Assembly (NCBI GenBank): GCA_002127295.1
Contig: NFUV01000001.1
Location: 1,054,001-1,118,000, forward strand
Direction: 5' to 3'
Length of the DNA stretch: 64,000 nt
Source of the DNA: Chitinophagaceae bacterium IBVUCB2
Lineage (GTDB): Bacteria > Bacteroidota > Bacteroidia > Chitinophagales > Chitinophagaceae
Shown here: one piece after another, positions 18,641 through 40,409 of the stretch
Layout of the letters: every line of letters starts with the position of its first letter
Numbering within the stretch: the stretch's first letter is position 1
The notes under the pieces: model-generated
Told to the model about the DNA's origin: nothing
Databases searched by the model: none
Seen by the model: only the letters and a program-made list of their open reading frames with translations
Made by a program: the position numbers and the translations under genes

Positions 18641-19036
18641 TTAGTAGAGTGAGTAGGTATACCTGCCTGTGCAGTTACCCGTCGCTGTCCAATCTCTTGT
18701 ACCTCCGGTTGAAATACAATAGATCTCTGTGTAACCATCAGCAACGTTTACAGTAAATGAACCATAAGGAGACAACGTACCACGATAGTAACCATCCACA
18801 TATACTTTTACATATAAACCAGAATAGTTATCAAAGAAAACGCTACAAGTTCCTCTTGATTTTGTTTCTACTACATCCGTAGTGGGAGCTTCCCCTTTAA
18901 TTTTAGATGCGCTACGGTTGGATTCTACAGCACTTGACTGTAATTTAACGGCAATTTTTTTCTGCGCAGAGACGGTGGTGGTAAATGCAAGCATCATACA
19001 AGTGATAGCAAACATTCCAATCAGTGTTTTTTTCAT
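18641..19036 (-). CDS. Small secreted protein with Cys/aromatic C-terminal half, caspase-island operator
   Basis: This 131-aa protein starts with a signal peptide (MKKTLIGMFAITCMMLAFTTTVSAQ). A basic, disordered-looking stretch follows (26-60), then Ser60-Arg61-Gly-Thr-Cys64 and a beta-rich, Tyr/Gly-rich tail with two more cysteines (CISTG, NCTGRYTYSLY). I do not recognise the family. It lies downstream of the 746-aa caspase on the same strand but has its own copy of the island operator (19120-19135) and -7 box. The SRGTC site resembles SRAGLC in the other small secreted protein of the island. I infer, without proof, that it is a target or partner of the proteases. Confidence 0.7.
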   Translation of the reverse strand: MKKTLIGMFAITCMMLAFTTTVSAQKKIAVKLQSSAVESNRSASKIKGEAPTTDVVETKSRGTCSVFFDNYSGLYVKVYVDGYYRGTLSPYGSFTVNVADGYTEIYCISTGGTRDWTATGNCTGRYTYSLY

Positions 19037-19088
19037 GTTTATTTTTTTTAAAGGTAATACGAAGGTTGTTTTAAAATTTTTATTGAGA

Positions 19089-19135
19089 GCAAGTTAATAT
19101 TGAGAATTACCTGCGCCAATACCCATTAATAGGTA
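19089..19135 (-). promoter_or_regulatory. Island operator S1 and promoter of the 131-aa secreted protein
   Basis: On the minus strand TACCTATTAATGGGTA (19135-19120) is a 16-bp 7-2-7 inverted repeat. TTG follows at once (19119-19117), then exactly 20 nt, then the -7-like box TAACTTGC (19096-19089). The leader to the ATG at 19036 is about 45-50 nt. Placement overlapping the -33 element suggests activator-type control. Confidence 0.7.
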
Positions 19136-19137
19136 TT

Positions 19138-21378
19138 TTAATATTTTGATTTTACAGGCATTTTAATAAGATTCCAGTTAGATACCGATTTTTTAAATGA
19201 CCTCGTTCCCCCCTCATTACCCATGTTCAGCAAGTCGCCTAATGGGCTCTCAACTCCTCTTGCTGATCTCACACCTTCCTGGTTAAATACCATGGCATAA
19301 TTAGGAATTGCTTCATCAGCAGCTAATACGTAATAATTATCTGTTCCAATCGGCTCTGATACTTCTCCTTCAAAAAGAAACACTTTCTTCACCAGGTTAA
19401 AGTTTTCATATTTAGGAAACTGGTTCCCAACATTCCCATCACTTTCGCCAGGATAAACCAAAGTCATATTACCATCTTTATCAATCAGGAAAACATATAC
19501 AAATCGTTTTACCCTGTTGGCACCGGTGTAACCTTCGTTAGCAACCAGATTAAACGCAACATTTTCACCCACTTTATATTCCTGGTTATTTATAACTGCA
19601 CCAGTTCCTTTATTTACGAGTTCCAGGTGAAAAGGAAAATTACTTTCGCCATCTTTTGGTCCGGATAACTGAACCCATCCTCTTATTTTAGAAAGCCGCA
19701 TCGCATACTCATATAAGTTATCCGCTACAGAAGTGCCAGCTTCATTCCCCCCATCTTCCAGCACAAAACTTTTTGTTTGTACAGGCATTGATTCAAGGCT
19801 ATCTCTGGATGATGTTTGTGCACGGCGAAATCCGTAAGCTGGTTTTCCATTCTCATCAATTGTTCCGTAAAGTACATAGTGCGCATCAGAAGAATTATCA
19901 ACAATCATAATACTCCGGTTGGTTCGCAATTTTCCTTTTACTGCATCTGCCAATGCTTTGGATGGTGGTAGTTCAAAATAGAAAGATGAATCCTGTTTAC
20001 CCAACTGTAAAAGGTTGGCAGCAGTAATGGTGGATGGCGCAGGTACATCTTTACCATCTACATTCACCTTGTATTTATTACCATCATAAAAAATAGTAGT
20101 GTAAGGATCAGCTTTCTCCAATTTATTTATCCAGTTTATTTTTTTAGATTGTCTCAATTCATTGTTAACTGCCGCCAGTTTTGCAATATCATCATATAGC
20201 ATATTTACAGATGGAACATATACTTTTAAAAGTGGCGCAGCAGAAGATACCCAGTTGGTTACTTCCAGCAGGTTACCAGCTTTTAGATCTTTAATATTAC
20301 CTTTCACTACCCTGGCTCTTGATTTATTGACACCCATTACAGAATCTATTTCCACTTTTACCAGTGTGTCGGTCCCATTAAATTTTACCAGTTCGTTTTC
20401 TTTATTCAATCCCAATGCAAAACCGCCCTGTAAAAAAACTTTACCATTTTCAAAACCGGAAATAGCTATTAAAGATTTATCCGGGAGGCTTCCTTTTTCA
20501 ATTCCGAACAAGGTTTGTTGCTGTCTTTCAGATTTACCTGCTAATACGGGTTCTTGTTTCTTTCCATTACTTTTTAAAATGGCCCGGAGACTTGTAAATA
20601 GATTTATTACTGATGCATTTACAGATTGTTGTTCCAGGGCCTGGCATAAAGCAATAGTAAAAGCACCGTGGGGAATATTATTTTCATCCCGCTGCTCTTG
20701 TGCAAATTCATTATCCTGGGCTGCTGAAATAATAAGAAAGTTTCCTTCTGATCTTGTCTCTGGTGGTACAGGTTGTGAAGCATCTTTTGCATCATAATTT
20801 GCATCGGCAATAAATCTTGATTTGCCGGGGGCATTGGGACCACGGGAAAGTGATCCGCTATGACAACAATCCATGATCACCGTTAATTTTACGCCTTTAT
20901 CTAAAAAGGCATTAAAAACTTTTGCCAGTTCTTTATCCCTGATATCCTCCACTCCTTCTTTATATGTATCACTGGGCACCATTGATTCATCTTTCTTATC
21001 TGTTTCCTTCGCCAAACTGTTAGGCACCTGGCTACCGTGCCCGGCATAATAGATAAAAGCAATATCATTGGCTTTACTTTTATCCAGTAAATCGTTCATT
21101 GATTTAAGAATGGCCGCCCTGTTAGCAGCATCATTATACAATGTGTCTACTTTGCCTGCATCAAATTGAAACTTAGAAACGATAACAGATTGAATAGAAC
21201 GACCATCATTTACGCAACCATCCAAATTTCTAAAAACAGACCTTGCAGTACTGGCCGGTTTATATGTGGAGGGTGGCTCATATTGGTCAATAGCAATAAT
21301 AAGAGCTCTTTTTTCTTGCGCCATGATAAGGCTGGTGATAATGAGAGCTAATGTGGTGATAAAGAAATGCTTGGACAT
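19138..21378 (-). CDS. Exported caspase-family (C14) protease with DUF4384-like tail
   Basis: This 746-aa protein has a signal peptide (1-20, MSKHFFITTLALIITSLIMA) and a caspase p20-like domain over about 23-300. It opens with KRALIIAIDQYE and carries catalytic His114 in YYAGHGSQ and Cys172 in IMDCCHSGS. The middle region (about 305-570) is of unknown fold. The C-terminus (about 575-730) resembles DUF4384, as in SGPKDGESNFPFHLEL and FVYVFLIDKDGNMTLVYP. C14 proteins of this kind are cysteine proteases; bacterial members mostly cut after Arg or Lys. It is one of six in the island and has operator S2 with a leader of about 235 nt. Its substrate is unknown. Confidence 0.9.
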   Translation of the reverse strand: MSKHFFITTLALIITSLIMAQEKRALIIAIDQYEPPSTYKPASTARSVFRNLDGCVNDGRSIQSVIVSKFQFDAGKVDTLYNDAANRAAILKSMNDLLDKSKANDIAFIYYAGHGSQVPNSLAKETDKKDESMVPSDTYKEGVEDIRDKELAKVFNAFLDKGVKLTVIMDCCHSGSLSRGPNAPGKSRFIADANYDAKDASQPVPPETRSEGNFLIISAAQDNEFAQEQRDENNIPHGAFTIALCQALEQQSVNASVINLFTSLRAILKSNGKKQEPVLAGKSERQQQTLFGIEKGSLPDKSLIAISGFENGKVFLQGGFALGLNKENELVKFNGTDTLVKVEIDSVMGVNKSRARVVKGNIKDLKAGNLLEVTNWVSSAAPLLKVYVPSVNMLYDDIAKLAAVNNELRQSKKINWINKLEKADPYTTIFYDGNKYKVNVDGKDVPAPSTITAANLLQLGKQDSSFYFELPPSKALADAVKGKLRTNRSIMIVDNSSDAHYVLYGTIDENGKPAYGFRRAQTSSRDSLESMPVQTKSFVLEDGGNEAGTSVADNLYEYAMRLSKIRGWVQLSGPKDGESNFPFHLELVNKGTGAVINNQEYKVGENVAFNLVANEGYTGANRVKRFVYVFLIDKDGNMTLVYPGESDGNVGNQFPKYENFNLVKKVFLFEGEVSEPIGTDNYYVLAADEAIPNYAMVFNQEGVRSARGVESPLGDLLNMGNEGGTRSFKKSVSNWNLIKMPVKSKY

Positions 21379-21688
21379 AACCTTTAATTTTGGATTTGGT
21401 GGTGCTATTTGAAGATTTTAATGTATTTATTACGAAAATATATCTGGCTAACTGGTAGACTACTAATATAAAGTGTTTTGAGTACAACATCCAACCTAAT
21501 ACCACTAACCGTAAGCATTGAGTTGATTGGAAGCTGAAAAGTTGTATGCCCTGAAAAAAAAGCAATATTACTTTTCGTATTAAATAAGTTTGATGTTTTA
21601 GAAGGTCTCATTATAAACACAATTTAGTAGCATAATTCTCCTGAAACTATACCCAGTTATGGGTATTTCATAGTAAGTGGCTCTTGGC
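21379..21688. other. Intergenic region of 310 bp holding the 746-aa caspase promoter
   Basis: The right part carries operator S2 and its -7 box. The remaining 230 nt form an unusually long, A/T-rich leader for the caspase gene. Short frames on the minus strand here have no protein-like character, and I see no convincing RNA structure. Confidence 0.5.
21619..21665 (-). promoter_or_regulatory. Island operator S2 and promoter of the 746-aa caspase
   Basis: TACCCAGTTATGGGTA (21650-21665) is a near-perfect 7-2-7 inverted repeat. Read on the minus strand, GGGTA is followed by TAG in place of TTG, exactly 20 nt, and then TAAATTGT (21626-21619), a TAnnTTTG-like box. Confidence 0.7.
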
Positions 21689-22876
21689 CTAATCTGTAAA
21701 TCCCCAAGTTACTTTCAGCATATCCTTATATTCTGCAGGAATTTCTACAGCTTGATAAGCTTTTAGAGCATATATTTTTGCCTCGGCAATGTCGCCAATA
21801 GTAGTATAGCAACTCATTTGAATAAGGTATAAACAGTACTCTTTTCCCTCATCACTTTCCTGTAGCTCATAACGGGCAAGCTTATTAATTAGGCGTTGGG
21901 CATTCTCTTTGTCAATGACCGCTGAAAATTCCTCAAACCACCCTGCAATGGCTTCAATACTGGTGGTGCTTTTTCTATCGTCAAGATATTCTAATAATAA
22001 TCCCGTTGCTTTACTGATATTTTTATCGGCCCGGAGTGCTTCTTTGAACAATAAGTCTTTTACAGCATACTCATAATTAGTAGGAATATATTTCTTTATG
22101 ACACTTGAAAAAGAGTCTATTTGCTGATTGCTTCTTTGATACACAACCATAGCCTGGTTAAATATTCTTTTGTACAAAAGAGAAGTTATTTGTTCGGTAG
22201 TAAGATTAAATAACTCTCCGATCCTGGCAGGATTATTACTTAAATAACTCAATTGTATTTCGGTAAGTTCGGGAGCCTGGAGCAATGCTGTAATGGCCAC
22301 ATCTTTATTGCTAAGAATATCTTTTTTTCCTGCCAGGTAGGCTCTAATAATTGCTCCTTTATCTACATCTTGTAATCTATCTGCCTGGAAAGCCCATTTA
22401 GCAAATGCAGCATCCGTCAGCAGTAAGCCGGCAGCTTGCTCTTTCATCATTATATATTGCTTAGCAGGATCTGCTGCATTTTCGCCAAGGCTGATAAAAC
22501 CTGTCACATCAGTTGCACCTATATATTTATGTACAAGTTTACCATCAGCAGAAAAGAACAGTAACGTAGGATAAGAATCTATGGAGAATTCTTTAGCCAG
22601 TTCTATACCTTCCCCCTTTTCCATATCAAACTTTACGCTGATATAGTGATGGTTGTAATAAGCGGCTACCCCTGCATCAGTATAAACATTTTTTTCAAGG
22701 TATTTACAGGGACCGCACCAGGCAGTATAAGCATCGAAGAATATCATCTTATTTTCCCGTTTTGCTTTTGCTTTTACTTCTGCCCAGGTGGCATTTTTTT
22801 CAAATGCAATCTCATCGGCGAAGCTTACAGAAAAAGAAAGGAAAAATACAAGCAAAAGTGAAGTATAACGTTTCAT
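21689..22876 (-). CDS. Exported thioredoxin-fold protein within the caspase island
   Basis: This 395-aa protein has a signal peptide (MKRYTSLLLVFFLSFSVSFA) and an N-terminal thioredoxin-like domain (about 22-150) with active site AWCGPCKYL, Cys54 and Cys57. The segment KRENKMIFFDAYTAWCGPC is typical of thioredoxin_7-type proteins that act in the periplasm. The remaining 240 residues are helical and contain no motif I know. It lies between two caspase genes on the same strand, but no island operator is seen upstream of it. It may receive transcription from the 820-aa caspase 115 bp upstream. A role in keeping the catalytic cysteines reduced is only an inference. Confidence 0.85.
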   Translation of the reverse strand: MKRYTSLLLVFFLSFSVSFADEIAFEKNATWAEVKAKAKRENKMIFFDAYTAWCGPCKYLEKNVYTDAGVAAYYNHHYISVKFDMEKGEGIELAKEFSIDSYPTLLFFSADGKLVHKYIGATDVTGFISLGENAADPAKQYIMMKEQAAGLLLTDAAFAKWAFQADRLQDVDKGAIIRAYLAGKKDILSNKDVAITALLQAPELTEIQLSYLSNNPARIGELFNLTTEQITSLLYKRIFNQAMVVYQRSNQQIDSFSSVIKKYIPTNYEYAVKDLLFKEALRADKNISKATGLLLEYLDDRKSTTSIEAIAGWFEEFSAVIDKENAQRLINKLARYELQESDEGKEYCLYLIQMSCYTTIGDIAEAKIYALKAYQAVEIPAEYKDMLKVTWGFTD

Positions 22877-22991
22877 AACAGTGTTTTTGGTGTGTATTAT
22901 TTAAAAGTAGATACTGTTGCCCCAACAATTACACTGGTGATGCAGTTAAATAAACCTTAATGAAATAAATGAGGATAAGCGTACGCCTCAC

Positions 22992-25454
22992 TTAATTTGA
23001 TCCAGCAGATTCGTTAGGGAAATATTTCCTGATGAGATTTTTGAATTCCGGAGTAGAACGAATAAAGGAAAGATCTTTATCATATAGCAGCGTAAAATAA
23101 TTACCGTAGCCAAGCCGTAATGCATTATCAAGACTTGCTAAAGCTGCCTCCTTATCTTTTATTAACGATTTATAACAAGCATGGTGATACCAGGTGTAAA
23201 CATCATGCTGCTTATATACAAATACCTGGTCAAAGAAATATTGCACCCCGGTCCCTTTATTCAACAATGCAGAATCCCTTATATATCCATACAATATCGA
23301 TAAGTAGGACAAATACTGCATATTAAATATATACTGCGTTTCCTTAAACTGCTTATACTCTTTTCCGTCTGTAACGGTATATGTTTTGCCAAAATATAGC
23401 TGAAGATTGTTTACATAACCCTCCATAAATGCAGGAGCATACACTGCCGATTTAACGAAGGACTGAAACGCCTTACCAATATCTCCTTCCAAAACCTCAA
23501 TTGTACCCATATTGAAATTAGCAAACACATTTAAGCTGTCAGCCGCCAATAATTTTCTAAAATATTTTTTTGCAGAATCAAGTTTGTTGTTGACAAAATA
23601 GTTATGCCCAATGTTATTATCACATATATCACAAGCCCCCATTTCTTTTTTAGCAAGATTATAATAATAGATAGCACTGTCATGCATACTGCTTCGTGAA
23701 AAATATACACCCTTAAAGAAATACCCATTCCCCTTGTATAAAGCAGAGGTATCTATTATGGAATTAATAATGGCTAAGGATTTAGCTGGCTTTTTATTAT
23801 TAAGGTACACATCTGATAATTTTATCCCTACGTCCAGCCAGCCTGGATTTTCTTTTAATAGCTCCTCAAATATTTTTTCTGCATTATCAAACATTTTTAA
23901 GTTTGAATATGTAATACCCAGAGAATAACGAGCCGTTAAATCGTTAGGTCTCAAATCAAGATATTTTTGAAAGGCTTTAGTGGCCTTATCAAAATCATAC
24001 AAAAAAGTATAACGAACTCCCAATGCGTCCAGTGTATAGGCTGCATTAGGCTCAAGTTGTTCAGATTGTTCTAATAGCTTAATAGAAGTTTCTACCGCAG
24101 GCTTCATATAAGCATTGTATTCATTTTCCGATAACGCCCAGGTTAGCGCCATGGACTCCATAAATAGTTTACGGGCCTTTATATTAGTATACATATAATG
24201 TTGATTGCCCAGGAGCTGCAAACAACTATCTAACTCTATTGCCACCAAGCCGCATGATTCCCTTGAAGAATAACTTCTTTGCCCTTTGAGGAGAGGTGAT
24301 ACAATGTCGTTGAATTTTTCGTTTAATACAGCACCCAGATTTCTTCGCATGAGTGCAATAAGTGGATTGTTTGGATATTTTCTTTCAAACAGGCGATAGT
24401 CCCTGAATGCATTAGTATCTGCCGGCATTACTAATTTCTTTTCAGCAATGTTATTTTTAAAAGAAGCATAGAGCTTCTTGCCTGCTTCATCCAGCGAGTC
24501 TGCATATTTTTCGTCGTTACCTTTTGTATTGGCAGATGCCAGCACAGGATAGCTTTTAGCTTTTTCCTGTTTTAAAGCTGCCAGTATGGTTGGGTTTACA
24601 ATACTGATTGTCTTACTCAAATCGCCACTTACCAACGGTATCTGTTTTCCTTCACTATATTTTGCCACATTGGTCTGGATATAACTTTGTAATTCAAACA
24701 TGCTGACTGTGCCATTATTATCATTATCGGCCAAGCCCTTCAACCCCTCCTCCAGTTGCAATGAAAAGAGGCCTCTTCCTCCACCCCACTCTGCACTCTC
24801 TAACGAAAGCTGGTTAGGTTGGCAGGAAAGTATTTTATATTCTTTGCCCCAGGCGGCAGTAAGAGCAGAGGCAGTTTGCTGCACGCCTTCAACTCCACCT
24901 TTTAAATTTCCGGAGTGACAGGCATCCACAATAAATATCATTTCAATTCCACGTTGTGCTAATGGAGATAAATATCTCTTTAAGTCCAAAATTTCCAGTA
25001 CATCATCATTCATTCCAAAATAATTTCCATTGGGACTATTGTGCAACAGCAGCAAACCGTTTTCAATTTGAGTAAGGTCTTCCATATCGCCATGCCCGGC
25101 AAAAAAGAAATACACCCGGTCACCGGGTTTAGCCTTACGGGCTAGTACTGAAATCGCATCCCCTACATTAGTACGGGTAGCGTTTCCGTTTACGAAAGTT
25201 TCAATATTGGCGACAGGCACTTTGCCTCCCCCTTCACTCAATAAAAAACTTTCAAATGCTTGTGCATCTTTATGTGCATATTGTAGATCCGGCACTAATT
25301 TATAATCGCTGATACCTACGATAATAGCATACACATTACCTTTTAGCGTTGCAGTATCGCCAGCCTTTTTAAAACCCCTTTCATCGGGCTGGGCAATTGC
25401 CTGTAAAAAACAGGCAAGCGACAATAGTAATATGAAATTGCGTTTCAGTTTCAT
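22992..25454 (-). CDS. Exported caspase-family protease with EF-hand-like loop and TPRs
   Basis: This 820-aa protein has a signal peptide (MKLKRNFILLLSLACFLQAIA) and a caspase domain over about 40-290: YAIIVGISDYK, His121 in FFFAGHGD, and Cys179 in FIVDACHSGN. Residues 243-254 (DNDNNGTVSMFE) match a canonical 12-residue EF-hand loop, fitting the calcium dependence known for metacaspases. The C-terminal half (about 470-700) consists of tetratricopeptide repeats, for example AYTLDALGVRYTFLYDFDKA and ARYSLGITYSNLKMFDNAE, likely a protein-binding arm. It is divergent from the 734-aa caspase; the pair shares operator S3. Confidence 0.9.
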   Translation of the reverse strand: MKLKRNFILLLSLACFLQAIAQPDERGFKKAGDTATLKGNVYAIIVGISDYKLVPDLQYAHKDAQAFESFLLSEGGGKVPVANIETFVNGNATRTNVGDAISVLARKAKPGDRVYFFFAGHGDMEDLTQIENGLLLLHNSPNGNYFGMNDDVLEILDLKRYLSPLAQRGIEMIFIVDACHSGNLKGGVEGVQQTASALTAAWGKEYKILSCQPNQLSLESAEWGGGRGLFSLQLEEGLKGLADNDNNGTVSMFELQSYIQTNVAKYSEGKQIPLVSGDLSKTISIVNPTILAALKQEKAKSYPVLASANTKGNDEKYADSLDEAGKKLYASFKNNIAEKKLVMPADTNAFRDYRLFERKYPNNPLIALMRRNLGAVLNEKFNDIVSPLLKGQRSYSSRESCGLVAIELDSCLQLLGNQHYMYTNIKARKLFMESMALTWALSENEYNAYMKPAVETSIKLLEQSEQLEPNAAYTLDALGVRYTFLYDFDKATKAFQKYLDLRPNDLTARYSLGITYSNLKMFDNAEKIFEELLKENPGWLDVGIKLSDVYLNNKKPAKSLAIINSIIDTSALYKGNGYFFKGVYFSRSSMHDSAIYYYNLAKKEMGACDICDNNIGHNYFVNNKLDSAKKYFRKLLAADSLNVFANFNMGTIEVLEGDIGKAFQSFVKSAVYAPAFMEGYVNNLQLYFGKTYTVTDGKEYKQFKETQYIFNMQYLSYLSILYGYIRDSALLNKGTGVQYFFDQVFVYKQHDVYTWYHHACYKSLIKDKEAALASLDNALRLGYGNYFTLLYDKDLSFIRSTPEFKNLIRKYFPNESAGSN

Positions 25455-25517
25455 TGTGAAAATACCTGACTCAGAGAAGATACGTCTAAAAGAAATTGAC
25501 TAACTCTCTTATTCACC

Positions 25518-25594
25518 TAAAGATAATATAGTTTGCAGAAGATAATCTACCCACTGACGGGTATTGTAATCTTGAATTGATAGTAATACCTTTC
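25518..25594. promoter_or_regulatory. Island operator S3, shared by two divergent caspase genes
   Basis: TACCCACTGACGGGTA (25548-25563) sits between the divergent genes. To the right, TTG (25564-25566), exactly 20 nt and TACCTTTC (25587-25594) lead to the ATG at 25612. To the left, the minus strand has TATCTTTA (25525-25518), with a 19-nt spacer counted the same way, leading to the ATG at 25454. One bound dimer could control both. Confidence 0.7.
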
Positions 25595-25611
25595 TTAAAT
25601 ATTTACCAGTT

Positions 25612-27816: not shown

Positions 27817-27835
27817 TTTTCATCAGCCCTATAAA

Positions 27836-27882
27836 TACCAGCTATTGGGTATTGAAACCAGGTTGTTGTTCGTCTAACTTTA
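27836..27882 (+). promoter_or_regulatory. Island operator S4 and promoter of the 127-aa secreted protein
   Basis: TACCAGCTATTGGGTA (27836-27851) is a 16-bp 7-2-7 inverted repeat. TTG follows (27852-27854), then exactly 20 nt, then TAACTTTA (27875-27882), which matches TAnnTTTG in seven of eight places. The leader to the ATG at 27996 is about 108 nt. Confidence 0.7.
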
Positions 27883-27995
27883 CTACAACAATTGAAGCGA
27901 TAGCCACCCAGATATAGTTATAAAGGCCAATTTTTTTTCTCCAAAAAAGCATATATTTAAAAACCATCAAATTTTATCACCTACAAAACACAACA

Positions 27996-28379
27996 ATGAA
28001 AAAGATTAAAATCTTATTCTCCGCCTCTCTCCTGCTGATGGCATCAGTGGTATTTGGGCAATCAGAAAAAACAGTATCTGCTTTAAAAGCAGGCACTACG
28101 TTAACAGACAGTGACATCGGCTTTTTAAGTATGGTGTCTAATGCAAGTCTTGATGCAAACCGTGGCGGCAGCCCGGAAGCAACAGTTGGCGGAACAACTT
28201 ACAAGGCCGGACAAACACTTACAGCTGCTAATGCAAAATCACTTTCTGCTGCAGTAAAAGCCTTTCAAAAAAAGTATAAAGCTCCGGAAGCATCCCGTGC
28301 CGGACTTTGCTACTATTGGTATTACTATTGCGATGGTTATGGCTATTGCTACTGGTACAAATATTGGTACTACTGTTAA
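27996..28379 (+). CDS. Small secreted protein with Tyr/Trp/Cys-rich tail, caspase-island operator
   Basis: This 127-aa protein has a signal peptide (MKKIKILFSASLLLMASVVFG), a 75-residue polar, Ala/Thr-rich middle, and an extraordinary tail at 105-127. Of those 23 residues, 12 are Tyr, 3 Trp and 4 Cys (Cys105, 112, 118, 127). Ser100-Arg101-Ala-Gly-Leu-Cys105 marks the border and would be a natural cut site for an Arg-specific caspase; the other small secreted protein of the island has SRGTC in the same place. The tail could be a disulfide-linked or tyrosine-crosslinked peptide. A strong terminator follows the stop. No known family. The precursor idea is inference. Confidence 0.75.
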   Translation: MKKIKILFSASLLLMASVVFGQSEKTVSALKAGTTLTDSDIGFLSMVSNASLDANRGGSPEATVGGTTYKAGQTLTAANAKSLSAAVKAFQKKYKAPEASRAGLCYYWYYYCDGYGYCYWYKYWYYC

Positions 28380-28394
28380 TCGAATTACCATACA

Positions 28395-28419
28395 AACCGG
28401 CTTTGGAGCCGGTTTTTTT
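28395..28419 (+). terminator. Terminator of the 127-aa secreted protein
   Basis: AACCGGCT (28395-28402) and AGCCGGTT (28407-28414) make an 8-bp G/C-rich stem with a 4-nt loop, followed by seven T in total. The next caspase has its own operator downstream, so the small gene is likely a separate unit. Confidence 0.85.
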
Positions 28420-28445
28420 ATGCCTGAGCTAACCCCTGATTAAAG

Positions 28446-28492
28446 TACCCTGCTCATGGTATTGGAAAAGCTTGTTAATAGTGGTAATTTTT
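28446..28492 (+). promoter_or_regulatory. Island operator S5 and promoter of the 1264-aa WD40-caspase
   Basis: TACCCTGCTCATGGTA (28446-28461) is a 7-2-7 inverted repeat followed by TTG (28462-28464), exactly 20 nt, and TAATTTTT (28485-28492). It overlaps an upstream in-frame ATG at 28456, which therefore lies before the transcription start; the real start codon must be 28501 or later. Confidence 0.65.
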
Positions 28493-28500
28493 CAAAAAAA

Positions 28501-32295: not shown

Positions 32296-32325
32296 GGCAA
32301 ATCTAAATCTTTAATAAAATTTAGT

Positions 32326-35300
32326 ATGAAACCTAACTATCGTTTCTTCCACTTCAATAAAATTTTTATTGCAAATTTTATTATCCTGCTACTAAATGCC
32401 GGGACAAATATTTTTGGGCAGCAAAAGAAACCTGTTCTTAAAGTACCGATGGGGCACCAGCAGATCATCAATTCAATAGCCTTTTCTACCGATGGAAAGC
32501 TGTTAGCCACCGCAAGTGCAGACAATACATTTATCATTTGGGATACTAAAACGGGTTTTGAACTTCGAAAAATAAAAATAGGTCAGCCTGTACACCAAAT
32601 ATTTTTTTCACCAGACGCCTCCTTCGTTGTTACTGTTAGCGGGCAAAATACAGCAGGCCTTACTAATGAGAAATTAGATGTAAAAAGCTGGGATACTAAA
32701 ACTGGCAAGCTGCTTAATCAATACCAATATTCCGGCTTACCAACACAATTGATAATTCCTGCCTCAGAGAATATTCTGGTAGCTGAAAATTCGGCTGACA
32801 TGCAAAAAATTGCTACCGCTGCCGGAAATATGAATTTTACTGACCCTACTAATATAAACAACTATACTTCCACTATTAATTATGATTCCATTGGAAAAGC
32901 TGCGGCAAAGCATGGCGAAGATTTGGTAAAAAAAATGGGAAGTATTGACATAAACGACCCTAAAGCAGTAGAAGAGTTACGAAAAAACATGATGAAAGAG
33001 ATAATGGGAAATGTTAATGCATTTAACCCGCTACAAAAAAATTTTATACAGTTAGACCCCAGGACACTTAAACCAACAGGCCAACTGTCTATTGGCTTTG
33101 AAAATGCAAATTATATAAGATATGATAATATAGACTACTTCATTTCACTGGAAAAAGAAACAGATTACTCCACCCGGAAAACAATTCACACTATAAATAT
33201 TTGGGAGTTGGATAAATTAAAAAAATCTCAACCTACAAAAGCTTTACCTGTAAAAAAGATACCACTTAGTTCCCAGGTTTATTCCATTGCCACCTCTCCT
33301 GCCAAAGGTTTTTTTACCACACTATCAAGAAGGAATGCCAGTATCCATTTATGGAAAATAAATGAACCTGCACTTTTGAAAGAATTTAGCATTAAAGGTA
33401 AATCACTTATTGGAACTGAATTTTCCAGGGATGGAAATAAACTTTATACCTATAGCTCCACCTATCCTGAAACCTACATAGAAGTCTGGAACACTACTAC
33501 CTACCAACAAGAGAACCTGATACAATTACCACTAAAATATTTTACGGGACGAATTATTTCTGAACCATCAGGTGAGTCTTTTCTGCTAGCATACATGTGG
33601 AACCTGGTAAGAATTAACAACGCAGGAGACAGTACAGGAGAGTTTAGAGGACGTTCCAGTTCGCCCAGCTATTATGGCTTTACTCCAAATGAACGAGAGG
33701 TTTATATCAACTATTATGGCTTTCCCGATATGAGAGATTATTTGTTAGTCTCTACGGAAGCAGGAGTTGAATATGAAGCATATAGAACCGGCAAAATCCT
33801 AACTAAGGAAGAGAAAGAAAAACTTGTGAAGCAACAAATGCAATTATTACCTCCAGCAACATCCCAATCATACAACGGTTATAACCTGATCTGGGATCTC
33901 ACTCATGGAGGGGCTATAGTTTCCAAGGCTAATGCTTTTTCTACCGGGCACAAAACAATTAGTGACGATAAAAAGTATCATTTAGAAAATGAAAAGTTTG
34001 AGTCGGGAAACCGGATTGGTAATCCCCATATGAAAGAGCTACTTCAACGACCTGTTGAAGGCATCTCCAAAGAAACAGCGGAGAAACTAAAAAAATACAA
34101 AGACCCAAACGGTATTTATTATAAACTAATGTTTGCTGATTACCTGAATAGTCCAGTAACATTACTTATAAACAAAAAAACAAATGATTCAATTTCTCTT
34201 ATTAAGATCGACTCGCTGGATTGGATCATGACGTTAAAAAACAACTATTACATGACATCTAAAAACGGGGCCAAAGCACTTAGCTATGTTTCCGGAATAC
34301 AAGTATATCCGTTTGAACAATTTGATTTAAAATACAACCGGCCAGATAAAGTGCTTAAAGCTATTGGTCTTGCAGAACCTGCTCTACTAGAAGCCTACAG
34401 GATGGCTTATATCAAAAGAATAAAAAAAGCAGGTATTGACACCCTCCAATTCAAAGACGAATTTGAATTGCCGGAAGCAGATATCAATAACCGAAATCAA
34501 ATCAGCAATACAACTAAAACCCAAAATCTAAAACTGGACATCATAGCCTCCGACAAAAATTCAAACCTTGATAGGTATAATATTTGGGTGAATGAGGTTC
34601 CTTTATTTGGCAAGAACGGCAAAAGCCTAAAATCACTGAACTCAAAAAAACTAAATACTACTGTCAATATAATTTTATCTAAAGGAACTAATAAAATTGA
34701 AACGTCTGTAACGAATATTGCTGGTGTTGAAAGTTATCGTATTCCTCTTTTGGTAAACTTTACACCCGACCAGGATATCAAAGAAACACTTCATTTTATC
34801 GGAATTGGTATCGACAAATTTGCAGATAGCAAATACAACCTTCAATACAGTGCTAAGGACATTCGGGATTTAAGTAAAAAATTAAAAGAAAAATATGGCA
34901 GTAATATTATTATTGATACTTTCTTAAATGAAGATGTAACCGTTGCTGCCATAAAATCATTAAAACAAAAATTGCTTAAAACAAATGAAAACGACAAAGT
35001 AGTAATTGCATATTCGGGCCACGGACTACTTAGTAAAGAATATGACTATTACCTTTCAACATATTCCATCAATTTCGAAAAACCCGAGGAAGGAGGCTTA
35101 TCCTATGATGATTTAGAGAACTTACTGGATAGCATTCCTGCCCGTAAAAAACTAATGCTGATTGATGCCTGCCACAGCGGCGAAGTTGACAAGGAGGATT
35201 TAGTTGCCCTTAATGCCAGTTCCGATTCGTTAATTAAAGGATTAAAACCGGTTGCTTATAAAAAGGAGAATCAATTGGGACTGAAGAATAGTTTTGAATT

Positions 35301-35568
35301 AATGCAAAGCCTTTTTGTGAATGTGGGAAAAAGCACCGGCGCCACTATTATTTCTGCCGCTGCAGGTACCCAGTTTGCGCTGGAAAGAAATGATTTGAAA
35401 AATGGTGTATTTACTTTTAGCATACTGGAAGCCATGAAACAATACTCTACAATGAAAATTAGTCAACTAAAAAAAATAGTGGGTGAACGAGTAGAGCAAC
35501 TTACCAAAGGAATGCAAAAGCCAACTTCCCGCAATGAAACTATCGCTGTTGATTGGAGTATGTGGTAA
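32326..35568 (+). CDS. Exported WD40-repeat caspase-family protease
   Basis: This 1080-aa protein has a signal peptide (about 1-34, FIANFIILLLNAGTNIFGQ). An N-terminal WD40 region follows (STDGKLLATASADNTFIIWD, and further blades to about 480), then a module before the protease (YPFEQFDLKYNRPDKVLK) that is also present in the 1583-aa paralogue. The caspase domain covers about 823-1080 with HFIGIGIDKFAD, His899 in IAYSGHGLL and Cys949 in LIDACHSGE. The protein ends in VDWSMW. No operator of its own is seen in the 30-bp gap, so it is probably cotranscribed with the WD40-caspase upstream. The shared pre-protease module points to duplication from a common ancestor with the next gene. Confidence 0.9.
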   Translation: MKPNYRFFHFNKIFIANFIILLLNAGTNIFGQQKKPVLKVPMGHQQIINSIAFSTDGKLLATASADNTFIIWDTKTGFELRKIKIGQPVHQIFFSPDASFVVTVSGQNTAGLTNEKLDVKSWDTKTGKLLNQYQYSGLPTQLIIPASENILVAENSADMQKIATAAGNMNFTDPTNINNYTSTINYDSIGKAAAKHGEDLVKKMGSIDINDPKAVEELRKNMMKEIMGNVNAFNPLQKNFIQLDPRTLKPTGQLSIGFENANYIRYDNIDYFISLEKETDYSTRKTIHTINIWELDKLKKSQPTKALPVKKIPLSSQVYSIATSPAKGFFTTLSRRNASIHLWKINEPALLKEFSIKGKSLIGTEFSRDGNKLYTYSSTYPETYIEVWNTTTYQQENLIQLPLKYFTGRIISEPSGESFLLAYMWNLVRINNAGDSTGEFRGRSSSPSYYGFTPNEREVYINYYGFPDMRDYLLVSTEAGVEYEAYRTGKILTKEEKEKLVKQQMQLLPPATSQSYNGYNLIWDLTHGGAIVSKANAFSTGHKTISDDKKYHLENEKFESGNRIGNPHMKELLQRPVEGISKETAEKLKKYKDPNGIYYKLMFADYLNSPVTLLINKKTNDSISLIKIDSLDWIMTLKNNYYMTSKNGAKALSYVSGIQVYPFEQFDLKYNRPDKVLKAIGLAEPALLEAYRMAYIKRIKKAGIDTLQFKDEFELPEADINNRNQISNTTKTQNLKLDIIASDKNSNLDRYNIWVNEVPLFGKNGKSLKSLNSKKLNTTVNIILSKGTNKIETSVTNIAGVESYRIPLLVNFTPDQDIKETLHFIGIGIDKFADSKYNLQYSAKDIRDLSKKLKEKYGSNIIIDTFLNEDVTVAAIKSLKQKLLKTNENDKVVIAYSGHGLLSKEYDYYLSTYSINFEKPEEGGLSYDDLENLLDSIPARKKLMLIDACHSGEVDKEDLVALNASSDSLIKGLKPVAYKKENQLGLKNSFELMQSLFVNVGKSTGATIISAAAGTQFALERNDLKNGVFTFSILEAMKQYSTMKISQLKKIVGERVEQLTKGMQKPTSRNETIAVDWSMW

Positions 35569-35598
35569 TTAGATAATATGTAATTTCGAGACAGTTGC

Positions 35599-35644
35599 TA
35601 CCCTACTCCGGGTATTGGCAATACCCTTTAACATTCGTACTTTC
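35599..35644 (+). promoter_or_regulatory. Island operator S6 and promoter of the 1583-aa TPR/WD40-caspase
   Basis: TACCCTACTCCGGGTA (35599-35614) is a 7-2-7 inverted repeat. TTG (35615-35617), exactly 20 nt and a weaker -7 box TACTTTC (35638-35644) follow. A third half-site lies just downstream, making a second palindrome GGGTATTG-GC-AATACCC at 35610-35626. Four half-sites or two overlapping dimers are possible. Confidence 0.65.
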
Positions 35645-35657
35645 AAAACAAAAACTG

Positions 35658-38600
35658 ATGCGCCCGGGCGGAATAATCCTACTCTTATTGTTTTTAGCAT
35701 CTTTTTTTCAAAAGGTTTCTGCACAAGAATATAAGCAGCTGGACTCGTTAGTTTCAAGAGCTGATTCCTTTTACTCCGCTAAGAACTACGATTCATCACT
35801 TGCAAATAATCTGAAAGCATTACAATGGATTCGCAATAGCAAGCAGGGTAATTATACATACCTGCTATCTGCACAGGTTATGTTGAACATTGGCCGTTGT
35901 TACAAAAAAAGAAACGAGCCAGAAAATGCTCATCGCTTTTTAACTTTTGCATTGCGCCAGTCCCGTGCAAATAAAATAAACGTTGATATTGAAACAGCTT
36001 TTGTTGAACTCAACGACTTACACCGTTCTATCAGTATAAACAATCAACTGTTCAATTATCCTGCAATTGAGGCCACAGAAGAAACATCAATGTATTTTCC
36101 GATCACCAAAGTGGAAGTTATTTCTAAAGATTCCATAAGAATTACCATACAGGGTGGCAAGTATGATGGGATAACGGACTCCGTACGCCGAGGTGGCATT
36201 TACTCAAAATATGAAGCTAAAGATAAAGAACGGCCAATTGGGCTTGTCAACTGCTACCCCAGAGAAGTGGGCAATAATTATACTATTGCACATGCTACCA
36301 ACGATACGTTGCTGCAAGTATTCCCTGGAGATTTAGTTGAACTAAAAACAAGGGTTCCCGTAAGCTGGAAAAATCTTGCCATTTATGTATCAGCAATTCG
36401 TTACATTAATTTTCAAAATAATTATAAAGAACCGATTTATAATTCCCGCTACTTGTATTACTATGCGGACAGTATGACTAATGATGATATTGCAAGAATA
36501 ATGAAAAGCCAGGTTGACGAAGTAGCACAAATGCTTGCGGAGGATACCACCGCAGGCGGATACAACGAAGTAAAAGGTATTAAAGGAATTTTTGCCGGCG
36601 AAACCCTCGTAAAAGCAATGGCGAATACTACAGATGAGCATTTAAAACTTTTTTTAGACTTTGTAAATGCTTTCCCAAGAAAATATATGGGCACACCCTA
36701 TAAATTTTCTGAAACATATGCAACCTGGGTCATAAGTAATACACCGATGGATCCAGCAGTAGTTAGTTCCTTTCTTATTAAACAACCTACTTCTATAGCA
36801 AGAAAAAAAATGGCCGGCAATCTTTCAAAGGATATAACCGATAACGAACTTATTGTAAAATGGTTTAACGAAGGAATGCTGATGGCCAATGCAGATAATA
36901 TAGACTCTGCACAGTATATGGCAAAGTTGATACAGGATGCTAGCACTGCATTAAATGATAAAACGAATGAAGGATGGGCTACTTATCTCTCTGGGTTTAT
37001 TGAAAAAAAATTAGGCAACTATAAAATTGCAGATAGTTCTTTTAAAAAATCCATTGCCCAGTTTAAACAATCGGGCAATAAAGAAGGTGAAGACTGGGCC
37101 ATTAGTGCTGTAGCAAATCTTCGAAGCAGTGAACAAATTAAAGTATCTGTGCAAACAGGGCATTTATTCCCTTACATCATTGCTATTTCCCCTAACTCAA
37201 GATTTATGGCTACCGGGGGCACTTATGATAAATTTATTAAGATATGGGATGTGACTTTGGGTAGGGAAATCGCAACTTTTACTGCACATACCAGTGATAT
37301 TAATGCCTTGCAATACAGCCCCAATGGCCGCTATCTTGTAAGCACTGCATACGATTCTACAATTAAAATTTGGAATGCTTATGATTACTCATTGATAAAA
37401 ACCATAAAAACCAAAAGGCCCGAGCTGGCAGTAATATTTACTCCTGATAGCAAACAATTAGTGGCAGGAGGAAGAGACTCTTTAGTTAAATTTTATGATA
37501 TCAGTACTGGTGCAGTTGTAAAAACATTAAAGCAGGTACATAAGGCATCAGTAACAGGTTTGGCTTTTTCTCCTGCAAACAGCGATGTACTTTTTTCTTG
37601 TGGTTCAGACAGCATGTTATATAAATGGGATTTGAGTACAGGTGATTGGGATCGCTGGTATAAAGAAAAAGGAAGAATAATGGTAGTATGGGTTAGCAAC
37701 AATGGGAGGTATATGTGTAGCCTGTCTTCCGACAGCATGGCGAATGTGTGGGATTTGGAAAATAAAAAAAGATACTTTAGAATTAAAGTACATGCAAAAA
37801 GCAATGGATACTGGGGAACATTTGCGGGACCGGCATTTAGCCCGGATAGTAAAACACTTGCTTTAGCATTAGCTGCCGACACCCTTTGCATTGTCAATTT
37901 GGCAACTCTCAAAGAGAGAAATTATCTTTTTAGTTCAACCGAAGGATATGGGCTTTTTGATGTGACATTTAGCCCGGATGGCAATTACCTGGCTGGCCGT
38001 TTAGATATTGGCGGCCCTATTCGTATTTTCAATTTTGCTAATTGGGATTTTGAATCTAACTCTTCGCTTAGCCATAAGGATATAAAAACTTATTACACAT
38101 TACCATTAAGCATTCAATTTACAAAAGACGATAATGAACTTGCCATTGTACATGATGGCATCTCAAAAGTGAATTTAAAAAATGGGAGCACTTCGTTTCT
38201 TTACTATGGTGCTTTATCTTTTCAAAACAACTATATACTCCTTAACAAGGAGAATATCGGAATCTATACTGATACGGAACTTCCATCTCTTAAATTTTTC
38301 GATTATATCAATAAGGAATTTATAGGTAAAGTCAGTCTGCCGGACTCAACAGAAAAGCTTACACACTTTGAATTAACTGCCGACAATAAATATGTTTTCC
38401 TGGGTGGAGACAAAGGCACAATTGCAGGATTTGAACTTAAATCGTATAAAAAAATATTCAGCAATATCTATAACCATAGCAGCAGTTCAAGCCTAAAAGG
38501 CTTTACTGCATTGCGATATGACAGTACCCGGCAACGACTTTTCGCAAGGGAAATGCTGAACCGAATACTTGTTATTGATATAAAAAACGGAAGTGTTCTT

Positions 38601-40409
38601 GACAGCATTATGATAGAAAGTGCAATGACACTACAGGTGACACCAAAATTTGTCTATATACCATCGGCAGGTGGCCAGGTATATAAATATGACGCCGCCA
38701 CATTTAAATTGCTGAAAAAAATTAAAATTCAAAATAGTAAAGAACTCGGTTACAACTCAGTTATGTCATATGATTATCGTTACCTCGTTGTGCAAATAGC
38801 AGATAAATTCATTACACTCGATACCAAAACAGATAAGGTACTTTATGAGAAATACGACCATGACTATGAAAATGGAATGATGGCCATTAGCCATAATAAT
38901 AAAATGTTAGCGACCGGAGGCTTTGATTGTAAAGTAAATATGTACGACCTAGCAACCGGCAATAAAATAGCAACCATTTTTACACCAAGAGGGAAAGATT
39001 TTATGATTGCCGATAGCAAAGGTAATTATCTGGCTCCCAAGAATACATTAGATGCAGTTACCTTTAATTATAATAATAACAGCTATGGATTTGAGCAGTT
39101 TGATACCCGCTTCAATAGACCTGATTTAGTGTTGAAACAACTTGGCAGAGCGGATAGCAGCCTCATAACATCATACTATGCTGCTTATAAAAAAAGGTTG
39201 AAGAAATTAAATATCAATGAAAGCACATTAGGCAGCGATGTGCATTTGCCGGTAGTCAGGCTGAAAGACCGGTTTACTGTAAAGCCTGCAACATCATTAA
39301 GTGAATATGAAATGGAAATAGAATGTTATGATGCAAAGTATCCGCTACAATCGCTCCAGGTACTGGTAAACAACAGTCCGGTTTTTGGAACAACAGGGAA
39401 AACGATTTCCGGCAATGTAAACAGAACTACACTGAAAGTAAAAGTGCCTCTTTCTACAGATAAAAATTTGGTGAAAGTTTATTGCACTAATAGTAAGGGC
39501 GCCACTTCCTTAACAGAAACAATAGAAATAAGTAGCAGTTACAAACCTGCTACTCCATCTAAAACCTATTTCATCGGAATTGCTGTTTCTAACTATAAAG
39601 ACACATCGATGAATCTTCGGTTTGCAGCAAAAGATGTTCGGGACCTTGCTGCTTCTTTTGGGAAAATGTATAAAACAAATTTTGAAGCAGACACATTGAT
39701 TGATAGCCGGGCCACTAAAGAAAACATACTGGCACTTCGGGATAAACTAATGAAGACCACCGTAAATGACAAAGTAATTATTTCTGTGAACGGACATGGT
39801 TTGCTAAGTGATAGTCTTGATTTTTACTACGCTACGCATGATATTGATTTTAAAAAGCCTACAGAAAAAGGTTTAAAGTATGAAGATCTGGAAGCATTAC
39901 TGGATGGAATTCCTGCCAGGAAGAAATTATTACTTATTGATGCTTGCCACTCCGGTGCTCTGGATAAGGAAGAAATGCTGGCACAACAAAAACAAGTAAC
40001 AACTATAAAAGATACAGCCACTGATAATGGATCGGTTTCGGGATTTGCATCAAGAGGTCTTATTGTAAAGGATAAAAAAGGAGCCGTAGATGCCAACAGT
40101 TCGTATGAAGTAATGCAGAATTTATTTGCAGATATTTCTTCGGGCAATGGCGCAGTAGTAATTTCTGCTGCCGGCGGAATGGAATATGCTTTTGAATCTG
40201 AAAAATGGAACAATGGAGTATTTACTTACTGTATACGAAAAGGAATAGAAGAAGATATGGCAGATAAAGAGGGTGGGAATGCTGACAGACGGGTAGATGT
40301 TGTAGAGTTAAAAAATTATGTAAGTAAAAAAGTAAGCGAATTAACCAAAGGCAAACAACGACCGGTATCAAGAAGAGAGAATATAGAATTTAACTGGGTT
40401 GTTTGGTAA
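35658..40409 (+). CDS. Exported TPR/WD40-repeat caspase-family protease
   Basis: I choose ATG 35658 (MRPGGIILLLLFLASFFQKVSAQ), giving 1583 aa. A TTG 63 nt upstream would overlap operator S6 and adds no signal. Residues of about 22-130 and 440-480 are TPR-like helices; WD40 blades follow (SPNSRFMATGGTYDKFIKIWD, YDSTIKIWNAYDYSLIKT and others, about 500-1130). A module shared with the 1080-aa paralogue (YGFEQFDTRFNRPDLVLKQL) precedes the caspase domain (about 1302-1583), with TYFIGIAVSNYKDT, His1380 in ISVNGHGLL and Cys1430 in LIDACHSGA. NGHG is an unusual variant of AGHG. It ends FNWVVW, like the paralogue. It is the last and largest protease of the island. Confidence 0.9.
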   Translation: MRPGGIILLLLFLASFFQKVSAQEYKQLDSLVSRADSFYSAKNYDSSLANNLKALQWIRNSKQGNYTYLLSAQVMLNIGRCYKKRNEPENAHRFLTFALRQSRANKINVDIETAFVELNDLHRSISINNQLFNYPAIEATEETSMYFPITKVEVISKDSIRITIQGGKYDGITDSVRRGGIYSKYEAKDKERPIGLVNCYPREVGNNYTIAHATNDTLLQVFPGDLVELKTRVPVSWKNLAIYVSAIRYINFQNNYKEPIYNSRYLYYYADSMTNDDIARIMKSQVDEVAQMLAEDTTAGGYNEVKGIKGIFAGETLVKAMANTTDEHLKLFLDFVNAFPRKYMGTPYKFSETYATWVISNTPMDPAVVSSFLIKQPTSIARKKMAGNLSKDITDNELIVKWFNEGMLMANADNIDSAQYMAKLIQDASTALNDKTNEGWATYLSGFIEKKLGNYKIADSSFKKSIAQFKQSGNKEGEDWAISAVANLRSSEQIKVSVQTGHLFPYIIAISPNSRFMATGGTYDKFIKIWDVTLGREIATFTAHTSDINALQYSPNGRYLVSTAYDSTIKIWNAYDYSLIKTIKTKRPELAVIFTPDSKQLVAGGRDSLVKFYDISTGAVVKTLKQVHKASVTGLAFSPANSDVLFSCGSDSMLYKWDLSTGDWDRWYKEKGRIMVVWVSNNGRYMCSLSSDSMANVWDLENKKRYFRIKVHAKSNGYWGTFAGPAFSPDSKTLALALAADTLCIVNLATLKERNYLFSSTEGYGLFDVTFSPDGNYLAGRLDIGGPIRIFNFANWDFESNSSLSHKDIKTYYTLPLSIQFTKDDNELAIVHDGISKVNLKNGSTSFLYYGALSFQNNYILLNKENIGIYTDTELPSLKFFDYINKEFIGKVSLPDSTEKLTHFELTADNKYVFLGGDKGTIAGFELKSYKKIFSNIYNHSSSSSLKGFTALRYDSTRQRLFAREMLNRILVIDIKNGSVLDSIMIESAMTLQVTPKFVYIPSAGGQVYKYDAATFKLLKKIKIQNSKELGYNSVMSYDYRYLVVQIADKFITLDTKTDKVLYEKYDHDYENGMMAISHNNKMLATGGFDCKVNMYDLATGNKIATIFTPRGKDFMIADSKGNYLAPKNTLDAVTFNYNNNSYGFEQFDTRFNRPDLVLKQLGRADSSLITSYYAAYKKRLKKLNINESTLGSDVHLPVVRLKDRFTVKPATSLSEYEMEIECYDAKYPLQSLQVLVNNSPVFGTTGKTISGNVNRTTLKVKVPLSTDKNLVKVYCTNSKGATSLTETIEISSSYKPATPSKTYFIGIAVSNYKDTSMNLRFAAKDVRDLAASFGKMYKTNFEADTLIDSRATKENILALRDKLMKTTVNDKVIISVNGHGLLSDSLDFYYATHDIDFKKPTEKGLKYEDLEALLDGIPARKKLLLIDACHSGALDKEEMLAQQKQVTTIKDTATDNGSVSGFASRGLIVKDKKGAVDANSSYEVMQNLFADISSGNGAVVISAAGGMEYAFESEKWNNGVFTYCIRKGIEEDMADKEGGNADRRVDVVELKNYVSKKVSELTKGKQRPVSRRENIEFNWVVW

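What the first reader, a model, noticed from the sequence alone, without database searches (positions are those of the whole stretch)
18641..40409. Island of six exported caspase-family proteases with small secreted partners
Six C14 proteins (746, 820, 734, 1264, 1080 and 1583 aa) lie within 22 kb with no unrelated gene except a thioredoxin-fold protein. All six begin with signal peptides and all keep the His and Cys of an active caspase domain. Around the protease they carry different parts: DUF4384-like tail, EF-hand loop plus TPRs, pseudo-caspase, or WD40 propellers. Two small secreted proteins are interleaved, and common operators precede the units. Genomic caspases are known, but this density, diversity and shared control point to one dedicated extracytoplasmic proteolytic system that I do not know as described.
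Basis: partly seen in the sequence, partly recalled or inferred. Interest (0 to 1): 0.93.

Follow-up and report, generated by a model that had tools for sequence, protein, structure and literature searches.

The report
Exported caspases with predicted small substrates
A bacterium carries six exported relatives of caspases in one gene island, next to small secreted proteins that look like their targets, which would make it testable what bacterial caspases naturally cut.

Summary
Six C14 genes, a thioredoxin-fold gene and two small secreted proteins (smA, smB) fill 18641-40409, and a palindrome TACCC-N6-GGGTA precedes most units. The genome has 13 C14 genes; eight carry the site within 320 bp upstream, three of them outside the island. 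The site is enriched in eight C14-rich genomes of the genus (66 against 11 for the reversed pattern), not in five C14-less ones (9 against 10). It also precedes other genes, so the regulon is wider than caspases.

The new point is that smA looks like a substrate. Of 18 clear smA genes, the window's included, 17 lie within 300 bp of a C14 gene. Arg61, in a disordered linker just before a beta domain, is the only linker residue kept in 18 of 18. smB, with an unrelated C-terminal part, keeps two such Arg sites in 9 of 9 sequences, the second just before a 4-Cys aromatic tail. All proteases aligned keep the two Asp that select basic P1 residues in metacaspases.

Best explanation (0.55): Arg-specific exported orthocaspases mature small proproteins encoded beside them. 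Cleavage is untested; the regulator and final role are unknown.

The parts
18641..19036 (-). smA, 131 aa: signal peptide, disordered linker ending in KSRG (Arg61), C-terminal beta domain
   Evidence: Arg61 kept in 18 of 18 sequences; model ordered from residue 63
19120..19135 (.). operator (1 mismatch), 83 bp before smA
19138..21378 (-). C1: exported C14 protease, 746 aa, DUF4384-like C-terminus; neighbour of smA
21650..21665 (.). operator (perfect), 271 bp before C1
21689..22876 (-). exported thioredoxin-fold protein, 395 aa, WCGPC; its reading frame is split in G059 and G062
22992..25454 (-). C2: exported C14 protease with EF-hand-like loop and TPRs, 820 aa
25548..25563 (.). operator (perfect) between divergent C2 and C3
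25612..27816 (+). C3: exported, N-terminal pseudo-caspase plus C14 domain with His and Cys, 734 aa
27836..27851 (.). operator (1 mismatch), 144 bp before smB
27996..28379 (+). smB, 127 aa: signal peptide, two Arg sites (R56, R101), then 4-Cys aromatic tail of about 25 residues
28396..28419 (+). terminator-like hairpin and T run behind smB (read by eye)
   Evidence: sequence
28446..28461 (.). operator (1 mismatch), 39 bp before C4
28501..32295 (+). C4: exported WD40-C14 protease, 1264 aa (longer ORF from 28456)
32326..35568 (+). C5: exported WD40-C14 protease, 1080 aa, no own operator, 30 bp behind C4
35599..35614 (.). operator (perfect), 43 bp before C6
35658..40409 (+). C6: exported WD40-C14 protease, 1583 aa (longer ORF from 35595)

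Best explanation
A co-regulated, extracytoplasmic proprotein-processing set. The C14 proteins are exported orthocaspase-type cysteine proteases that cut after Arg. smA and smB are exported proproteins. The protease encoded beside them cuts after the conserved Arg in the linker and frees a folded C-terminal product: a roughly 70-residue beta domain from smA, and a roughly 25-residue peptide with four Cys, probably disulfide-bonded, from smB. The oldest core is a pair of smA and a C14 protease, usually of the C1 kind (C14 domain first, about 660-790 residues); around it the genus has added further C14 architectures and smB. A DNA-binding regulator that recognises TACCC-N6-GGGTA drives these units and other genes, among them TPR-CHAT proteins. 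Shown: gene content, linkage, operator, Arg conservation, kept catalytic and specificity residues. Inferred: export, cleavage, Arg specificity of these enzymes, disulfides, existence and identity of the regulator. The job of the freed products is unknown; my guess is a surface or envelope function.
For: Linkage: of 8 smA genes in all 42 genomes of the genus, 8 lie within 300 bp of a C14 gene (the G029 neighbour confirmed as C14). In 396 genomes of the order there are 10 further strong relatives outside the genus (E 6.1e-20 or better); 9 of 10 lie within 115 bp of a C14 gene. Those 10 genomes hold 53 C14 hits in all, and three of them only 2 each, so chance adjacency is unlikely. Gene order and orientation vary while linkage persists. 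Site: of 37 linker positions Arg61 is the only one invariant in 18 of 18; the next residue is Gly in 17 and Ser in 1. It sits at the edge of a stretch with pLDDT under 50, just before the ordered beta domain. smB has both Arg sites in 9 of 9, and in the window's smB these two are its only Arg. Specificity: the two Asp that hold basic P1 residues in metacaspase (PMC6426788, passages) are present in 14 of 14 C14 domains aligned from this genome and in 12 of 12 C1-kind proteases aligned from smA loci. Co-control. Selection: dN/dS 0.015-0.081 for smA and smB, 0.045-0.139 for the proteases.
Against: No cleavage, expression or localisation data exist. G068 has smA with no C14 gene within 7 kb, though it has seven C14 hits elsewhere, one of the same size class. 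One smB copy (G031) has no C14 gene on its 14-kb contig and another (G029 C78) lies 1.9 kb from one with two genes between. The six g40 genomes are one clade, so the support outside the genus amounts to about three independent lineages. In the distant loci the operator is perfect once, has one mismatch in the g40 loci, and is missing near smA in the three f8 loci. A conserved Arg-Gly before a domain could serve recognition rather than cleavage. Other Lys and Arg exist in the linkers, so site choice is not unique. The smB internal repeat that would strengthen the case is significant only in the window copy (4 of 1000 shuffles) and not in three others tested. The thioredoxin-like frame is split in two of the closest relatives, against an essential role.
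Confidence: 0.55

Rival explanations
1. smA and smB are cognate inhibitors or chaperones that keep the exported C14 proteases latent; the conserved Arg is a bait residue held in the active site, in the manner of the staphostatin inhibitors encoded beside staphopains (recalled).
For: A small beta protein encoded within 300 bp of a C14 gene in 17 of 18 cases; often co-directional; conserved Arg fits the S1 pocket.
Against: In the window both small proteins have their own operator site and smB has its own terminator-like hairpin; in G033 and G031 smA is convergent to or divergent from the neighbouring protease. The Arg lies at the end of a disordered linker, not in a structured loop. smB and smA share the site but not the domain that follows, which fits a shared cut site better than a shared inhibitory fold.
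Confidence: 0.2
2. The C14 proteins are general extracellular or periplasmic digestive or quality-control proteases; the small proteins are unrelated envelope proteins of the same regulon.
For: The operator precedes many other genes, a good part of them with hydrophobic, signal-like starts; PMC4933709 speculates on extracellular protein degradation by metacaspases of some bacteria (passages).
Against: Regulon membership does not explain why smA stays beside a C14 gene in other genera and families, where the operator is weaker or absent, nor the single invariant linker Arg.
Confidence: 0.17
3. A death or defence module: the caspases act on the cell itself when triggered, as proposed for other prokaryotic caspase homologs.
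For: All six match the PADLOC 'caspase' domain model; prokaryotic caspase homologs are discussed mainly as cell-death proteases (PMC7475262, passages).
Against: All six carry signal-peptide-like starts, so they should not meet cytoplasmic targets. No complete defence system was recognised in the island; the matches cover only the caspase part and, in C4 and C6, the WD40 part.
Confidence: 0.06

Closest known systems
Prokaryotic caspase homologs / orthocaspases and metacaspases (MEROPS C14B)
   Same: C14 domain with His-Cys dyad and both acidic S1 residues; nearest solved sequences to C1 are metacaspases-9, -1, -4 and MCA2; DUF4384 and WD40 partners are known in cyanobacterial orthocaspases (PMC7475262, passage).
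   Different: Six genes in one 22-kb island; the 2012 survey, with operon data for 200 genomes, found at most three in one predicted operon (PMC3501461, passage; an operon is not the same unit as an island). All look exported, most share an operator, and they are paired with small secreted proteins that carry a conserved Arg site.
Clan CD Arg-specific processing proteases with a dedicated proprotein substrate: gingipain R with fimbrillin, fragipain with its protoxin (recalled)
   Same: Exported clan CD cysteine protease in Bacteroidota predicted to mature a secreted precursor after a defined Arg.
   Different: Families C25 and C11, not C14; here protease and candidate substrate are encoded side by side and the precursors match no Pfam family.
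RiPP and leader-peptide systems
   Same: smB ends in a short, strongly conserved Cys- and aromatic-rich peptide behind a long leader.
   Different: It has a Sec-type signal peptide, and no modification enzyme lies in the island. A review of RiPP leader proteases has no occurrence of 'caspase' or 'C14' (PMC10885120, term search only).
Staphostatin-staphopain type protease-inhibitor pairs (recalled)
   Same: Small protein encoded beside a secreted cysteine protease.
   Different: smA has a signal peptide; its conserved Arg ends a disordered linker; orientation relative to the protease varies.

Membership tests
Orthocaspase / C14B caspase homolog | C14 domain over the curated family cut-off | tested here: met
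   6 of 6 window proteins over 21.4 bits
Orthocaspase / C14B caspase homolog | catalytic His and Cys present | tested here: met
   6 of 6 in the window; in the genome 14 of 14 domains keep His and 13 of 14 keep Cys, one has Ser
Orthocaspase / C14B caspase homolog | two acidic S1 residues that hold a basic P1 | tested here: met
   14 of 14 domains aligned; 12 of 12 C1-kind proteases from smA loci; feature from PMC6426788 (passages)
Orthocaspase / C14B caspase homolog | cleavage after Arg or Lys and not Asp | not testable with these tools
   needs enzyme assay
Orthocaspase / C14B caspase homolog | absence of a separate p10 domain (orthocaspase) versus presence (metacaspase) | not tested
   no p10 analysis was run
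Gingipain/fragipain-like processing protease (C25, C11) | belongs to peptidase family C25 or C11 | tested here: not met
   the only peptidase family shown by Pfam for the six is C14 (for C4 and C6 the best 25 families are shown)
RiPP cluster | modification enzyme beside the precursor | tested here: not met
   island genes are C14 proteins, one thioredoxin-fold protein and the two small proteins
Known anti-phage defence system | complete described system in the locus | tested here: inconclusive
   only the caspase domain model matches all six; C4 and C6 also match HEAT-ARM_XIII through their WD40 part
Protease inhibitor (staphostatin-like) | small protein binds and blocks the neighbouring protease | not testable with these tools
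   needs assay
smA fold families in the PDB | clear structural relative | tested here: inconclusive

The most novel reading that the evidence does not exclude
Bacterial orthocaspases have dedicated, genetically linked native substrates. In Chitinophagaceae and at least one other family of its order an exported C14 protease and a small secreted proprotein form an old protease-substrate pair. One genus has expanded this into a caspase-clan regulon under one palindromic operator that releases a beta-domain protein and a disulfide-rich aromatic peptide outside the cytoplasm, a protein-maturation role rather than cell death.
Probability: 0.5. Interest if true: 0.82.

Novelty: new variant of a known kind. 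Interest (0 to 1): 0.68.

Why it matters
What bacterial caspase homologs cut in nature is, to my knowledge, a largely open question, usually discussed as cell death. Here the genome offers candidate substrates with an exact predicted cut site, next to the protease, conserved across genera, and small enough to test in one experiment. It also gives an operator that marks a regulon containing many of the exported caspase-clan proteins of the genome.

Tried and rejected
Regulator: the operator resembles a NarL half-site arrangement (recalled consensus), so LuxR/GerE genes were counted in 18 genomes; there are 20 in this genome and 2 to 28 in the others, too many to single one out. The inner positions of 48 sites show no NarL-like preference. 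A CRP-like regulator would fit 5-6-5 spacing but was not searched. The regulator stays unidentified.

Caspase-only regulon: rejected. In this genome 6 of 9 perfect sites precede C14 genes, but in eight relatives only 12 of 63 examined do, plus 1 CHAT gene and 1 smA; 32 lie near starts of other genes and 17 deep inside genes. A gene in L057 that I first took for CHAT-like by BLAST shows only TPR and ankyrin repeats in the part fetched and is not counted.

smB as an internal repeat with an Arg at each end: tested on four copies, significant only in the window copy.

smB fold: Foldseek against PDB gave no match with E under 0.84. smA: a common beta sandwich, no functional clue. The top Foldseek hit, titled RtkS and PpkA, was followed to PMC6082577 (passages): no occurrence of DUF4384 or caspase; dropped.

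Weak smA hits G185 and G237 (E 1.2e-5 and 9.4e-4) look like different proteins and their genomes have no C14 hit; they were left out of the 18. The smB hit in G032 is only a tail remnant and was left out of the 9.

Literature: the searches listed nothing that describes this island or pairing (listings, plus passages of six papers: PMC3501461, PMC4933709, PMC6426788, PMC7475262, PMC10885120, PMC6082577); 'Chitinophagaceae' with 'metacaspase' gave 0 papers. One search was too broad to help, and one search gave background listings only.
Full report
The finding. Window 18641-40409 was re-read with tools. I call them C1 (19138-21378), C2 (22992-25454), C3 (25612-27816), C4 (28501-32295), C5 (32326-35568) and C6 (35658-40409). 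The small proteins are smA (18641-19036) and smB (27996-28379). The only other sizeable gene is an exported thioredoxin-fold protein (21689-22876). Every C14 domain passes the Pfam cut-off, and all six keep His and Cys. C3 carries a second, dead caspase domain at its N-terminus (hhalign E 3e-12 against the other C14 domains; Cys position Gly in 9 of 9 sequences, His replaced in 8 of 9).

Density. The genome (4.0 Mb) has 14 C14 hits, which are 13 genes because one gene has two domains. Six of the 13 lie in this 22 kb. In the 2012 survey, with operon predictions for 200 genomes, no operon had more than three (PMC3501461, passage). In the 58 genomes, 14 of the 35 of the genus (own included) have no C14 hit, and all 14 are 2.1 Mb or smaller; the 21 with C14 are 2.6 Mb or larger.

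Does it stay together? Yes, with variation. G059 and G062 have nearly the same island. G027 has smA, C1, the thioredoxin-like gene, a further C14 gene, two smB copies, C2, C3 and a C6-like gene. G029 has C6 (in two frames), C2, C3, C1, smB, the thioredoxin-like gene, smA and a further C14 gene. G033 has C2, a C6-like gene, C1 and smA. G009, G025, G028 and G019 have only the divergent C1-C3 pair. So the C1-C3 pair is common and the rest accretes.

Shared control. TACCCN6GGGTA is found at 19120, 21650, 25548, 27836, 28446 and 35599. Over the whole window, the number of matches with up to two mismatches (16) equals chance (mean 14.6); what is not chance is the position and quality. Within 320 bp upstream of start codons, 7 of 13 C14 genes of the genome have a perfect site (0 of 300 shuffles of each region; C2 and C3 share one site) and C4 has one mismatch (3 of 300); C5, behind C4, and four others have none; smA (1 of 300) and smB (3 of 300) have one-mismatch sites; the thioredoxin-like gene has none. 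Of nine perfect sites in the genome, six precede C14 genes. One one-mismatch site outside, C2:1128455, precedes a TPR-CHAT protein (CHAT domain E 1.1e-50), which is also of the caspase clan (recalled). Across 16 relatives, perfect sites number 66 against 11 for the reversed control in eight C14-rich genomes, 9 against 10 in five C14-less ones, and 6 against 3 in three others with C14. Of the 66, I examined 63 (three of G009 were not listed): 12 precede C14 genes, 1 a TPR-CHAT gene, 1 smA, 32 lie near starts of other genes, among them VWA/YfbK, ankyrin and astacin-like proteins, and 17 lie deep inside genes. Of the 9 sites in C14-less genomes I examined 6: 2 near starts, 3 inside genes, 1 elsewhere. 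Of the 6 sites in the three other genomes only one was fetched, and it lies inside a gene. The regulon is therefore real but wider than caspases, and a quarter of the sites may be chance.

The small proteins. smA relatives were sought with a profile in all 42 genomes of the genus (8 genomes, own included) and in 396 genomes of the order (13 genomes incl. own; 10 strong and 2 weak outside the genus). All eight in the genus lie within 300 bp of a C14 gene. Nine of ten strong ones outside lie within 115 bp of one. The tenth, G068, has none within 7 kb but seven C14 hits elsewhere. Six of the ten belong to one genus-level group (g40), so the independent lineages outside are about three. The neighbour is usually of the C1 kind; in G020 it is a C2 relative and in G029 a 1061-aa protein with DUF4384 and a C-terminal C14 domain. 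DUF4384 shows in four of six C1-kind proteins scanned from other smA loci, each below the cut-off of 27 bits. smB is found in 6 of 42 genomes with 8 copies; six copies lie in C14 islands, one 1.9 kb from a C14 gene, one on a 14-kb contig without any. A ninth, cut by a contig end, is in MAG Chersky_580. A scan of the genome collection for smB found seven loci, all in MAGs labelled Chitinophagaceae or, once, Bacteroidia; six of them are from genomes already in hand.

The predicted cut site. smA is a signal peptide, a variable linker and a beta domain. Across 18 sequences the linker (positions 26-62 of the window's smA) has one invariant position, Arg61; Gly62 and Pro51 follow at 17 of 18. The prediction is disordered at 48-60 and ordered from 63 (mean pLDDT 72.8). 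smB has two Arg sites in 9 of 9 sequences, and in the window copy they are the only Arg residues; contexts such as LDANRG, LDASRG and EASRAG resemble smA's VDASRG and TKSRG. In one smB copy (G029 C42) the second site was matched by motif, since the automatic alignment places it elsewhere. What follows the second site in smB is unrelated to smA: a tail with four invariant Cys, identical in four genomes at the protein level while synonymous sites change. Metacaspases and orthocaspases hold a basic P1 residue with two Asp (PMC6426788, passages); both are present in all 14 aligned domains of this genome and in the 12 C1-kind proteases aligned from smA loci (three of the six g40 proteins were aligned). 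Proteases predicted from sequence to cut after Arg thus sit beside proteins whose only invariant linker residue is an Arg.

Selection. Against G059 and G062, dN/dS is 0.015-0.043 for smA, 0.045-0.081 for smB and 0.045-0.139 for the proteases. The small proteins are about as constrained as the enzymes, which does not suggest an arms race.

How it most likely works. The set is made together, exported, and the proteases release C-terminal products from small precursors. The steps of export, cleavage and release are inferred. The thioredoxin-like protein could serve the four Cys of smB, and the five islands with smB all have it, but its frame is split in G059 and G062, so I do not make it an essential part. 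Rivals, in order: smA and smB as inhibitors; independent members of an envelope regulon; a death or defence module.

Known or new. The enzymes are known kinds; WD40 and DUF4384 fusions are known kinds. I found no account of such an island, its operator, or linked small proteins in the searches, which cover open-licence papers only. I file it as a new variant of a known kind.

Noticed in passing
L028 (G000:C2:864000-874000), L066, L060, L089, L097: A perfect operator lies between a VWA/YfbK-type exported protein and a divergent sigma-factor gene in five genomes of the genus (G000, G059, G019, G028, G027).
   Followed up: partly
L029:4456-7613: A one-mismatch operator precedes an exported TPR-CHAT protein (980 aa); in G059 (L065) a perfect site precedes another TPR-CHAT gene, and in G029 (L057) one precedes an ankyrin-TPR protein.
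   Followed up: partly
G032:C2:10158-10211 (in L041): G032 keeps only about the last 18 residues of the smB tail without the rest of the gene, which looks like a remnant of a lost smB.
   Followed up: partly
L038:3303-4547 and L108:3575-4796: The thioredoxin-like gene of the island is split into two reading frames in both closest relatives.
   Followed up: no
L035:6680-11291: The C6 homolog of G029 is split into two overlapping reading frames (WD40 part and C14 part).
   Followed up: no
L019:6813-10253: A 1146-aa protein with two C14 domains, one with Ser in place of the catalytic Cys, without the operator.
   Followed up: no
G000:C1:2099592 and 2102154: Variant palindromes TACCTACTTATAGGTA and TACCTATTAGTAGGTA lie beside two LuxR-type matches, a possible related operator.
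   Followed up: no
genus, 35 genomes: All 14 genomes without any C14 hit are small (2.1 Mb or less).
   Followed up: partly
window 40468-41046: A small lipoprotein-like gene that I labelled DUF4136 from memory (no NCBIfam hit) lies convergent to C6 and stays there in G062 (L108).
   Followed up: no
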